DNA of 37,888 nt from Hyphomicrobiaceae bacterium (GTDB lineage Bacteria; Pseudomonadota; Alphaproteobacteria; Rhizobiales; Hyphomicrobiaceae). The stretch spans positions 1 through 37,888 of the forward strand of contig WBUN01000047.1 in NCBI GenBank assembly GCA_008933705.1, given 5' to 3'. Positions 29,823 through 32,093 of this stretch are shown here, one piece after another. Position numbers and translations under genes: made by a program. The notes below the pieces were generated by a model that ran no database searches, had not been told where the DNA came from, and was given only the letters and a program-made list of their open reading frames with translations. Position 1 is the stretch's first letter; every line of letters begins with the position of its first letter.

Positions 29823-31040
29823 ATGAGTCCGCTGCACAGCAGGCACGGCTTGGGGTTTGCCGCCGGGCTTGCCGCCATTCTCGTTTCAGCCACCGCCATC
29901 ACCGCGCAGGAGAAGAAGGACGAGGAGCCGTTCTGGGCCAAGGGGCGGCCGAAAACCGATGCGGCCATGAAAATGGCTCCCGTCGCGGCGCCACCAGTAC
30001 CCACGCCGGCCGACAAGCTACCCGTCCTCAAGGCGCCGCCGGGCTTCAAGGTCGAAGTCTACGCCAGCGGCATCCTCGATGCGCGCGGGCTGCGCCGGGG
30101 CGACAAGGGCACCATCTTCGTCAGCTCGCTGTTCGTCGCCGGCAAGATCTACGCGGTGACCGGCGAGAAGGGCAAACGCCAGGTCAAGACCATCGCCAGC
30201 GACCTGATGCTGCCCAACGGCATCGAGTTCCGCGGCGGCTCGCTGTACGTCGCCACGCCCAAGCAGATTACACGCTACGACAAGATCGAGGACAGCCTCG
30301 ACAAGCCGCCGCAGCCCGTCGTGGTCTACGACAAGCTGCCGGGCGATGTCCCTCACGGGTGGAAGTTCATCAAGTTCGGTCCGGACGGCAAGCTCTACGT
30401 GCCGATCGGCGCCCCCTGCAACATCTGCGATCCGCCCGCCACGCATGCGCAAATCTTCAAGATCAACGCGGACGGCAGCGGCGTGGAGGTGGTCGCCCGC
30501 GGCGTGCGCAACACGGTCGGCTTCGACTTCCATCCCAGGACCGGCGAGCTGTGGTTCACCGACAACCAGCGCGACTGGCTGTCCGAGGACATGCCGCTCG
30601 ACGAGCTGAACCGCATCACCAAGCCCGGCAGCCAGCACTTCGGCTTCCCCTACTGCCATTCCGGCCTGATGACGGATCCGGAGTTCGGCTGGGGCAAGTC
30701 GTGTGACGACTACACCAAGCCGGCTGCCCTGCTCGGCCCGCACGCGGCCCCGCTCGGCATGCGCTTCTACACGGGCAACAAGTTCCCTGCCAAATACCGC
30801 GGCGCCATCTTCATCGCCCGGCACGGCCCGTGGAACCGCACCAAGAAATACGCCGACGTGTCGGTGGCGTATCTCGACGCTAGCGGCAAGGTGACCTCGG
30901 TGCAGCCGTTCCTGACCGGCTTCGTCAAGGACAACCAGTACCTCGGCCGCCCGGTTGACCTGCTGGTGATGCCGGACGGCTCCCTGCTGGTCTCCGACGA
31001 CCACAACGGCGCCATCTACCGCGTCTCGTATGGCGGATAG
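29823..31040 (+). CDS. Periplasmic PQQ-dependent sugar/sorbosone dehydrogenase-like protein
   Basis: 405 residues with a signal peptide (~1-28, cut near TAITAQ) and a six-bladed beta-propeller of the soluble glucose dehydrogenase/L-sorbosone dehydrogenase type. Family markers are LPVLKAPPGFKVEVYA, LMLPNGIEF, GPDGKLYVPIGAPCNICDPP, GVRNTVGFDFHPRTGELWFTDN and IFIARHGPWNR. Such enzymes oxidise sugars or aldehydes with pyrroloquinoline quinone and pass electrons to a cytochrome c. The next gene encodes a dihaem cytochrome c and overlaps this one by 11 bases, which fits. The substrate and actual PQQ use are inferred from the family. GAGGAGGAACGCC before the ATG is a strong ribosome-binding site. 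Confidence 0.88.
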   Translation: MSPLHSRHGLGFAAGLAAILVSATAITAQEKKDEEPFWAKGRPKTDAAMKMAPVAAPPVPTPADKLPVLKAPPGFKVEVYASGILDARGLRRGDKGTIFVSSLFVAGKIYAVTGEKGKRQVKTIASDLMLPNGIEFRGGSLYVATPKQITRYDKIEDSLDKPPQPVVVYDKLPGDVPHGWKFIKFGPDGKLYVPIGAPCNICDPPATHAQIFKINADGSGVEVVARGVRNTVGFDFHPRTGELWFTDNQRDWLSEDMPLDELNRITKPGSQHFGFPYCHSGLMTDPEFGWGKSCDDYTKPAALLGPHAAPLGMRFYTGNKFPAKYRGAIFIARHGPWNRTKKYADVSVAYLDASGKVTSVQPFLTGFVKDNQYLGRPVDLLVMPDGSLLVSDDHNGAIYRVSYGG

Positions 31041-31647
31041 CACATCGCACCGTGCGCGGAGGCGGCTTCTCGCCTCCGTGCCTCTGCTGGCCGCAGCGCT
31101 CCTGCTCCCGAGTGTCCAACGCGCGCCGGCCGCTTCGCTCCGGGAGCAGATCGCGCAGTGCGCGACCTGCCATGGCGAGAACGGTCAATCGCAGAACCCG
31201 GACATTCCCTCGATCGCCGGACAGCCCAAGCTGTTCGTCATGTACCAGCTGTTCTTCTATCGCGAGGGGCGCCGCAAGCATGCCGACATGAATCGCATCG
31301 CCAGGGCCATGAGCGATGCCGACCTGCAGGCGATATCGGACCACGTCGCCAGCCTTCCCGCCCCGCCGCCTGCAACCCGCGCCATCGACGACCCGGCACG
31401 CTACCGGCGCGGCGCCGCGCTCGCCGAGCAGCGCTTCTGCCAGTCCTGCCACAACGCCGACTACTCGGGGCGCGAGCAGATGCCGCGCGTAGCCGGCCAG
31501 CACGAGCCCTATCTGCTCAAGGCGCTCAAGGACTACCGCGCGGGCGCGCGCATCGGCACCCAGGCGGCCATGGCGGAGGCCGTGCGCGGCCTCGACGATG
31601 CGGGCCTCGGCGATCTTGCCTATTTCTTGGCCCGTTTCCGCCCCTAG
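31030..31647 (+). CDS. Dihaem c-type cytochrome (cytochrome c4-like)
   Basis: 205 residues with a signal peptide (Arg-rich start, hydrophobic ~13-28, probable cut after PAA at ~35). There are two haem-binding motifs: CATCH (Cys44, Cys47, His48) and CQSCH (Cys137, Cys140, His141). The two halves look like a tandem class I cytochrome with candidate axial Met residues downstream of each motif (MNRIARAMSD; MAEAVRGLD). It is the likely electron acceptor of the dehydrogenase encoded immediately upstream, with translation coupled through an 11-base overlap. The TAG stop codon lies inside the first arm of the palindrome at 31644, so the repeat itself supplies the end of the gene. Confidence 0.93.
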   Translation: MADSTSHRARRRLLASVPLLAAALLLPSVQRAPAASLREQIAQCATCHGENGQSQNPDIPSIAGQPKLFVMYQLFFYREGRRKHADMNRIARAMSDADLQAISDHVASLPAPPPATRAIDDPARYRRGAALAEQRFCQSCHNADYSGREQMPRVAGQHEPYLLKALKDYRAGARIGTQAAMAEAVRGLDDAGLGDLAYFLARFRP

Positions 31648-31718
31648 TGTCCCGATCGCGAAGTTCGTCACCATCTGCGGCACGCTCCGAACGAACTTCG
31701 CGATCGAAAGGACACTAG
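31644..31718. repeat. Long imperfect palindrome 1 (type A)
   Basis: Arms 31644-31668 and 31691-31718. The outer stem is 9 bp (CTAGTGTCC/GGACACTAG), then a three-base bulge AAA on the right arm (31707-31709), then a 16-bp inner stem CGATCGCGAAGTTCGT and a 22-base loop. The left arm includes the TAG stop of the cytochrome gene. Confidence 0.9.
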
Positions 31719-31731
31719 CAAGTCTATGATT

Positions 31732-31809
31732 CTAGTGTGGTTCAGATTCCGAAGTCCGCTTCGGAGGCTGGTCGCACGGTGGTAGCGGACTTCGGAATCA
31801 CCACACTAG
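31732..31809. repeat. Long imperfect palindrome 2 (type A, opposite orientation)
   Basis: The outer stem is 10 bp (CTAGTGTGGT/ACCACACTAG), then a three-base bulge TCA on the left arm (31742-31744), then a 16-bp inner stem GATTCCGAAGTCCGCT and a 23-base loop. It is related to palindrome 1, but the bulge is on the other arm and stem bases differ in compensated pairs. Its last TAG is shared with the start of palindrome 3. Confidence 0.9.
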
Positions 31810-31880
31810 AGCAGGATCGCTTCAGATTGAATCACCTCGCCCCATGAGCAACGGCGCGGCTGAAGCGTGAATCCTGCTCT
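31808..31880. repeat. Long imperfect palindrome 3 (type B)
   Basis: The outer stem is 10 bp (AGAGCAGGAT/ATCCTGCTCT), then a three-base bulge TGA on the right arm (31868-31870), then an 8-bp inner stem CGCTTCAG/CTGAAGCG and a 34-base loop. TGA on the right arm equals TCA on the left arm when read from the other strand. Confidence 0.85.
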
Positions 31881-31892
31881 GCTTCCTTGGTG

Positions 31893-31955
31893 TAGAGCGA
31901 GATTCACGTTCTTGAATGGAAGCCAAGTGCTTCCATCAAGAACGATCTCGCTCTA
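31893..31955. repeat. Long imperfect palindrome 4 (type B, opposite orientation)
   Basis: The outer stem is 11 bp (TAGAGCGAGAT/ATCTCGCTCTA), then a three-base bulge TCA on the left arm (31904-31906), then 8 bp (CGTTCTTG), a one-base A bulge, 8 bp (ATGGAAGC) and the 5-base loop CAAGT. It shares AGAGC, GATTCACG and the bulge with the reverse strand of palindrome 3. The remaining 138 bases up to nadD show nothing further. Confidence 0.9.
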
Positions 31956-32093
31956 GCGTCGCGGCTCGCCTCCGCACAAGTCACGGGCCGTCTCCAGGGA
32001 GCTGCGGCAAAGGCGTTGGCGGCAAAGCCCTTTCGCGCGGCGAAGTCCTCGCGCTACTATCTCCCTCGCGTCAGTGAACCGTTGCGTGAGTAC

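What the first reader, a model, noticed from the sequence alone, without database searches (positions are those of the whole stretch)
31644..31955. Four consecutive long palindromes with one shared architecture, alternating orientation and compensatory stems
Each palindrome has an outer stem of 9-11 bp, a three-base bulge on only one arm, an inner stem of 8-16 bp and a loop. The bulge is AAA (right arm), TCA (left), TGA (right = TCA on the other strand), TCA (left), so the units alternate in orientation, as in the BIME arrangement of REP elements. Units 1 and 2 are related (CTAGTGT, CGAAGT) but differ by paired changes, such as CC/GG against GG/CC in the outer stem. Units 3 and 4 are related to each other through AGAGC and GATTCACG. 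Conserved shape with covarying sequence and a fixed bulge suggests recognition of a bulged hairpin, for example by a REP-associated HUH transposase (TnpA-REP/RAYT) encoded elsewhere, or a selected RNA structure. I do not know a named family with exactly this description.
Basis: partly seen in the sequence, partly recalled or inferred. Interest (0 to 1): 0.75.

Follow-up and report, generated by a model that had tools for sequence, protein, structure and literature searches.

The report
Twin-hairpin mobile DNA from IS630 transposons
The four palindromes are two abutting, non-coding mobile elements, each made of a pair of hairpins whose outer edges resemble the ends of IS630-type jumping genes, which gives a concrete, testable mover for a class of two-armed repeats in alphaproteobacteria whose mobility had been left open.

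Summary
Element A (31644-31809; 11 full-length host copies at 98-100%) and element B (31806-31956; 16 near-full-length copies) each hold two hairpins; A sits in B's terminal CTAG. A covariance model finds A-type elements in 21 of 36 genomes of the family; 35 of 45 stem pairs show two-sided compensation. The 3-4 base bulge is on the INNER arms (A: 59 of 59 scorable hairpins; B: 35 of 35; wider set 97 of 98). A's OUTER arms resemble the termini of IS630 insertion sequences: an intact host IS630 ends CTAGTGTCGTGATTCTGAAGTCCG, A ends CTAGTGTGGTGATTCCGAAGTCCG. Most informative empty sites show insertion at a single CTAG. No Y1/RAYT transposase was found and G-U pairs are rare, so REP/BIME and a primarily RNA role are unlikely. 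Best reading: IS630-mobilised MITEs whose inner, phase-shifted end copies cannot be cut (last step inferred). The two-arms-plus-linker plan matches the description of CIR repeats, and most Rhizobium repeat hairpins examined share the bulge rule. B's link to IS630 is weaker than A's.

The parts
31644..31809 (.). Element A: 166-bp two-hairpin MITE, CTAG at both ends
   Evidence: 11 full-length copies at 98-100% in the host; CM R1 full-length match (the window copy is also in the model's alignment); empty sites in relatives for two other copies
31644..31718 (.). Hairpin 1 of A; outer (left) arm CTAGTGTCCCGATCGCGAAGTTCG; inner (right) arm carries the AAA insertion 31707-31709
31719..31731 (.). Linker of A (CAAGTCTATGATT), followed by an inner CTAG
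31732..31809 (.). Hairpin 2 of A; outer (right) arm, read inwards, CTAGTGTGGTGATTCCGAAGTCCG, resembles the right end of the intact IS630 on C23; inner (left) arm carries TCA 31742-31744
31806..31956 (.). Element B: two-hairpin MITE with CTAGAGC...GCTCTAG ends; its left CTAG is where A is inserted
31806..31880 (.). Hairpin 3 (B, left); inner arm insertion TGA (TCA on the other strand) 31868-31870; GAATC (GANTC) at 31829-31833, position 24 from the end as in most IS630 left ends examined
31892..31956 (.). Hairpin 4 (B, right); inner arm insertion TCA 31904-31906; outer arm read inwards CTAGAGCGAGATCGTTCTTG
31644..31647 (+). CTAG at the left end of A; the TAG at 31645-31647 is also the stop codon of the upstream ORF 31030-31647
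   Evidence: at another A site (L014) the CTAG, ending an open frame, is kept in two relatives

Best explanation
[quoted passage not shown] Each is made of the two ends of an IS630-family (Tc1/mariner-type) insertion sequence, where each end has become a hairpin by an inverted copy of itself. A transposase encoded elsewhere would bind the two outer arms, cut at CTAG (TA) and paste the whole two-hairpin unit into another CTAG, duplicating CTAG or the TA in it. The inner arms are near-perfect copies of the ends but with 3-4 extra bases about 10 bp from the terminus; this should turn the binding site by about a third of a turn relative to the cut site, so that inner ends are not used and the unit moves whole. 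Shown here: unit boundaries, copy number, CTAG target, resemblance of A's outer arms to IS630 ends in host and relative, inner-arm insertion rule, Watson-Crick stem covariation. Inferred: that IS630 transposase moves them, and that the inner insertion disables the inner ends. For B the link to a second IS630 group is weaker.
For: Host has an intact 1177-bp IS630 with CTAG at both ends (NCBIfam transpos_IS630 284.9 bits against a cut-off of 100; DDE_3). A profile of 27 A-type outer C-arms without the CTAGTGT ranks that IS's right end first of 6,842 positions, and in a same-genus relative ranks the right ends of two tandem IS630 copies first and second of 7,958, their left ends third and fourth. 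A site in C77: 3 same-genus relatives have the uninterrupted sequence with one CTAG; C9 site: in 2 relatives the alignment reaches and keeps CTAG. B: one relative has the empty site with one CTAG. Nested or tandem units share a single CTAG: A in B (window), IS in IS, element in element. Inner-arm insertion: A 59 of 59 scorable of 64 hairpins, B 35 of 35 scorable of 38, wider set 97 of 98 scorable of 102. Second IS630 group: right ends CTAGAGC or TTAGAGC in 16 of the 17 loci where an end was located, of 20 fetched. GAATC at position 24 of the left end in 12 of 13 such IS and in 10 of 22 B copies. ISY100, an IS630: the 24-bp end repeat is footprinted and 30 bp per end suffices (PMC2170065, passages).
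Against: No movement has been observed. The profile of the other (T) arm ranks the host IS's right end first and its left end only fifth, with a non-IS position second, and has no IS end in its top five in G002. B profiles rank an IS630 end first in only 1 of 11 IS loci. Two alignments that span a site lack CTAG: one A site in G005, one B site in G002. Of 9 A sites and 10 B sites examined, only 2 and 2 gave an alignment at the junction. In two Rhizobium-type repeats (L173, L174) the second hairpin shows no 3-4 base inner insertion. IS ends were located by looking for CTAG or TCTA after the stop, so only the letters further in are independent. TA and CTAG duplication cannot be told apart.
Confidence: 0.8

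Rival explanations
1. REP/BIME-like repeats moved by a Y1 (RAYT/TnpA-REP) transposase that reads the bulged hairpin.
For: Alternating orientation, hairpins with a bulge, multi-copy.
Against: No PF01797 match in the host genome, while the same search rings in 5 of 14 control genomes. Hairpins of 65-78 nt whose outer arms (A) match DDE-type IS630 ends. CTAG target present once when empty and on both sides when filled; Y1 transposition duplicates no target (established knowledge).
Confidence: 0.03
2. The hairpins are kept for a function in RNA (3' end protection, attenuation or processing of transcripts) and mobility is secondary.
For: Strong covariation; a 2008 study calls rhizobial RIME/Sm repeats sequences of unknown function with conserved secondary structure (PMC2573895, passages).
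Against: G-U is rare: 11 cells against 1169 Watson-Crick in 44 pairs, and 11 more in the 45th pair; units have exact mobile-element borders; Rfam has no match in the window at gathering scores.
Confidence: 0.1
3. IS630 MITEs, but the inner insertion is not a lock on the inner ends: it is a by-product of how the hairpin arose, or breaks up a long palindrome so that SbcCD or replication does not destroy it.
For: Long perfect palindromes are unstable in bacteria (established knowledge); a bulge would help on either arm. Two Rhizobium-type second hairpins lack the insertion.
Against: Either arm would do, yet the insertion is on the inner arm in 97 of 98, 59 of 59 and 35 of 35 scorable hairpins. 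If stems are corrected from one arm to the other, a neutral bulge should be erased (inference).
Confidence: 0.3
4. Each single hairpin is the mobile unit and pairs are chance neighbours.
For: Each hairpin of A is bounded by CTAG on both sides; B left hairpins without a right one exist, e.g. two in tandem in L040.
Against: The places listed in the model search are full-length two-hairpin matches of about 163-170 bp (the model favours such matches); a unit inserted in another brings both hairpins and the linker; empty sites lack the whole unit.
Confidence: 0.05

Closest known systems
RUP of Streptococcus pneumoniae (MITE of IS630-Spn1)
   Same: Small non-coding intergenic repeat, ends like those of an IS630 in the same genome, TA target (review PMC2229807 section 8, read whole)
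   Different: Section 7 of the same review says repeats other than CIR have no arms or linker and fold by 5'-3' end pairing; here each end is its own hairpin with an inner-arm insertion
CIR1-4, Caulobacter CcrM-associated intergenic repeats (Chen and Shapiro 2003, not held)
   Same: About 110 bp, two long inverted-repeat arms joined by a linker, GANTC sites, TA at the termini, in alphaproteobacteria (PMC2229807 section 7 read whole; table passage)
   Different: The review leaves the mechanism of mobility open and its table gives no TIR; here ends, target, empty sites and a candidate transposase are given. Published CIR sequences were not compared
RIME and other rhizobial repeats; Bru-RS of Brucella
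   Same: Repeats of Hyphomicrobiales; Rhizobium and Sinorhizobium repeats fetched here (L162-164, L173-175) have the two-hairpin plan, with an inner-arm insertion in every first hairpin folded and in the second of L163 and L164
   Different: That RIME1 has two palindromes is recalled; the founding paper was not held, so whether the fetched repeats are RIMEs is untested. Second hairpins of L173 and L174 lack the insertion. No Brucella sequence was compared
REP/BIME with RAYT
   Same: Alternating orientation of hairpins
   Different: No Y1 transposase found in the genome, different size and ends, CTAG insertion

Membership tests
IS630-derived MITE | Ends resemble those of an IS630 element, ideally in the same genome | tested here: met
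   A: C-arm profile ranks the IS right end first of 6,842 positions (own) and first/second of 7,958 (G002); T-arm profile supports the right end in the host only. B: shares CTAGAGC; inner part ranks first in 1 of 11 loci only
IS630-derived MITE | Insertion at TA with TA duplication | tested here: met
   Single CTAG in empty sites in 3 relatives (A, C77), CTAG kept in 2 (A, C9), 1 relative for B; against: two spanning alignments without CTAG; TA versus CTAG duplication not separable
IS630-derived MITE | Multi-copy, recent, small | tested here: met
   11 full-length copies at 98-100% of a 166-bp unit
IS630-derived MITE | Mobilised in trans by the IS transposase | not testable with these tools
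   Needs a transposition or excision assay
CIR | Two inverted-repeat arms plus linker | tested here: met
CIR | GANTC sites | tested here: met
   27 of 28 A-type elements hold at least one; B of the window holds three; 18 of 22 B copies hold at least one
CIR | Sequence similarity to published CIR1-4 | not tested
   Paper not held
RIME | Sequence similarity to published RIME1/RIME2 | not tested
   Paper not held; similar plan in Rhizobium repeats only
REP/BIME-RAYT | Y1 (RAYT) transposase in the genome | tested here: not met
   PF01797: 0 matches; assembly 96.4% complete
REP/BIME-RAYT | Short hairpin with GTAG/GTGG foot | tested here: not met
   Hairpins are 65-78 nt with CTAG ends, compared with table passages of PMC2817692

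The most novel reading that the evidence does not exclude
A general class of alphaproteobacterial 'twin-hairpin' MITEs, including CIR and RIME repeats, in which an IS630 end is duplicated as an inverted, phase-shifted decoy (3-4 extra bases) that folds with the real end yet cannot be cut; GANTC sites inherited at a fixed place (position 24) from the IS630 left end would tie transposase binding or expression to CcrM methylation and so to the cell cycle, as Dam does for IS10 (recalled).
Probability: 0.3. Interest if true: 0.8.

Novelty: new variant of a known kind. Interest (0 to 1): 0.55.

Why it matters
Two-armed or palindromic intergenic repeats (Bru-RS 1994, RIME 1995, CIR 2003; references seen) are long catalogued in alphaproteobacteria. 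The 2007 review says more information is needed on how CIRs move, and a 2008 study calls rhizobial repeats of unknown function. The present data name a transposase family, a target site and a structural rule, so the question can be put to an excision assay. The position-fixed GANTC in IS630 left ends offers a reason for the CcrM association.

Tried and rejected
Rfam at gathering thresholds: no match in the window. RAYT: no match. B against plasmids by distant blastn: no match. Are A sites mostly TAG stop codons? Open frames upstream are common in this GC-rich DNA (627 of 2280 random positions have 80 or more open codons), so nothing can be concluded. Profile test for B ends: negative in 10 of 11 loci. 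Empty sites: 2 of 9 A sites and 2 of 10 B sites gave an alignment at the junction; of these, one relative per element spans it without CTAG. A search for IS630-A-type transposase motifs in the loci of the named-genome scan printed nothing. An early arm aligner gave cluttered end gaps and was replaced by block matching. Scoring of B changed: with an 11-base second block 24 of 38 hairpins were unclear and the 14 scorable were +3 (12) or +4 (2); with an 8-base block 35 were scorable. One search used a third, joint scoring. L088 was dropped from the alignment list, and L017, L018 and L100 (near-duplicates) were left out of A1. The one negative offset (-3, L253) comes from a model hit framed across a nested array. 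The sets overlap by several elements (same genome places fetched twice). For B, 22 copies were scored; shorter fragments were left out. Of 20 second-group IS loci, L150, L157 and L159 were left out because no end was located; for the left-end GANTC count L142 and L160, whose nearest CTAG lacked AGAGC, were left out and 13 were used.

Full report
WHAT IS THERE. The window at 31644-31956 holds four palindromes as described. A search of the host genome splits them into two units. Unit A, 31644-31809, is 166 bp from CTAG to CTAG; 11 full-length copies are 98-100% identical, with unrelated flanks, and two contig-end pieces overlap and may be one more copy. Unit B, 31806-31956, has the ends CTAGAGC...GCTCTAG; 16 near-full-length copies counting the window (the others 78-95%) and 23 partial matches were seen in the stretches fetched. 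The CTAG at 31806-31809 is at once the right end of A and the left end of B: A went into B's terminal CTAG. A contig-end copy (L019) also abuts a B fragment at the shared CTAG.

ARCHITECTURE. Related A-type units occur in 18 of 60 genomes (host included) by blastn and in 21 of 60 by a covariance model: 21 of 36 of the same family, 0 of 24 from other families of the order. At most 47 candidates per genome were scored, with stricter filters, and a place can match on both strands, so these are not copy numbers. On 28 A-type units the two-hairpin fold keeps 95.6% of 1256 cells paired; 35 of 45 pairs have a change on both sides (164 cells, 0 of 500 shuffles as high, slid structures 11-23; the fold was derived from this alignment). 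G-U is rare: in 44 pairs 11 G-U, 1169 Watson-Crick, 48 other; the 45th pair, at the loop, which I left out there, adds 11 U-G. That points to palindromic DNA kept in step rather than to a fold selected in RNA (inference).

THE BULGE RULE. The bulge lies on the arm facing the partner hairpin. Of 64 hairpins in 32 A-type units, 59 could be scored: 39 have 3 and 20 have 4 extra bases on the inner arm, none on the outer. In 51 units from model searches, 98 of 102 hairpins could be scored: +3 53, +4 39, +2 3, +5 1, +1 1, and one -3 that comes from a hit framed across a nested array. The two sets overlap. In B, 35 of 38 hairpins could be scored, 34 with +3 and one with +4. The insertion sits about 10 bases (A) or 12 bases (B) from the end.

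WHAT MOVES THEM. No Y1/RAYT gene was found in the host. Five DDE_3 (IS630) matches were. The intact one (C23) is 1177 bp with ends CTAGTGGAGTGATCGACAAATCAG and CTAGTGTCGTGATTCTGAAGTCCG; it is an IS630 transposase by NCBIfam. A same-genus relative has two tandem copies of a 70% identical IS630 that share one CTAG, with right end CTAGTGTCCTGATTCCGAAGTT, against A-type outer arms such as CTAGTGTCCCGATTCCGAAGTT. With the CTAGTGT left out, the C-arm profile still ranks these right ends first; the T-arm profile does so in the host only and places the left end fifth. A second IS630 group has TAGAGC at the right end in 16 of 17 loci where an end was located, of 20 fetched; plasmid records, some annotated as IS630, also show it. 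B begins and ends with the same letters, and one IS (L156) has a left end, CTAGAGCATGATCATCTTTGATGGAATCGCG, that ranks first for both B profiles; in the other 10 IS loci tested no end does. So A's parentage is well supported, B's moderately.

TARGET. For the A copy on C77, three same-genus relatives carry the uninterrupted site with one CTAG; for the copy on C9, two relatives keep CTAG where the alignment reaches it, while a third aligned through without it. The other 7 A sites gave no alignment at the junction. For B, of 10 joined sites two had spanning alignments: one with CTAG, one without. Units inserted into units confirm borders: in L333 two units share one CTAG; in L253 (Bradyrhizobium MAG) a whole two-hairpin unit sits in an inner CTAG of another. 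In these cases the unit moved whole, and an inner CTAG served as target.

MECHANISM (inferred beyond this point). IS630 elements cut and paste at TA; ISY100 transposase protects almost all of the 24-bp end repeat and 30 bp per end are enough (PMC2170065, passages). A two-hairpin unit offers four such ends within 166 bp. Extra bases between terminus and binding core on the two inner ones would put them out of phase and leave only the outer pair usable. The hairpins may help the transposase, or be a relic of how the unit arose; the data do not decide.

GANTC. In 12 of 13 left ends of the second IS630 group, GAATC begins at position 24, and all 13 have GANTC between 15 and 45, where about 6% would be expected from the density in these loci (the 13 are homologous, so not independent). 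B copies have GAATC at the same position in 10 of 22. CIR repeats were named for CcrM (GANTC) sites of unknown role (PMC2229807 section 7). Descent from an IS630 left end would explain them.

KNOWN KIN. The review PMC2229807 (sections 7 and 8 read whole, others by passages) describes CIRs as two arms plus linker, unlike other bacterial repeats of that kind, with mobility unexplained, and RUP as probably moved by IS630-Spn1. Rhizobium and Sinorhizobium repeats fetched here have the same plan: 4 unpaired bases on the inner arm of the first hairpin in the three folded (L163, L164, L173), 3-4 on the inner arm of the second in L163 and L164; the second hairpins of L173 and L174 lack it. PMC2573895 mentions RIMEs and other repeats as of unknown function (passages). 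The 2024 MITE review calls CIR strictly intergenic and has no whole-word IS630 or RIME (passages). Nine listings showed no title or abstract start that links CIR or RIME to IS630; most listed papers were not opened and subscription papers are mostly not held, so this is no proof of absence from print.

HOST. A same-family genome (G025) has a contig of 1,027,330 bases, the length of a record titled Hyphomicrobiaceae bacterium; a same-genus genome (G002) has one of 47,050 bases, the length of a record titled Hyphomonadaceae bacterium. The titles disagree; Hyphomicrobiaceae is my guess.

Noticed in passing
L143, L146, L147, L152, L154, L156, L158, L166-L171, left IS ends: GAATC (GANTC) at exactly position 24 from the terminus in 12 of 13 IS630 left ends, and a further GATTC at position 54-60, shortly before ATG in several, in 12 of 13: possible CcrM control of IS630.
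   Followed up: partly
L114 1450-3797 (G002): Two IS630 copies in tandem that share one CTAG, in a genome where all 47 candidates scored matched the A-type model: a possible active pair of mover and passenger.
   Followed up: partly
L053, L054, L055 (host C87, C45, C54): Another short element with CTAGTGTT ends and a different inner part; in L055 a relative of it lies inside an A-type element.
   Followed up: no
query 1277-1310 (flank of L026): An unrelated intergenic repeat around GCTCCGGCCGGGATGACA with dozens of matches, mostly in G001, G002 and G005.
   Followed up: no
host genome: CTAGTGT is rare (61 + 68) against its reversed control (229 + 208), and many of the listed places belong to these elements.
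   Followed up: no
L040 1004-1170: Two B left hairpins in tandem without a right hairpin.
   Followed up: no
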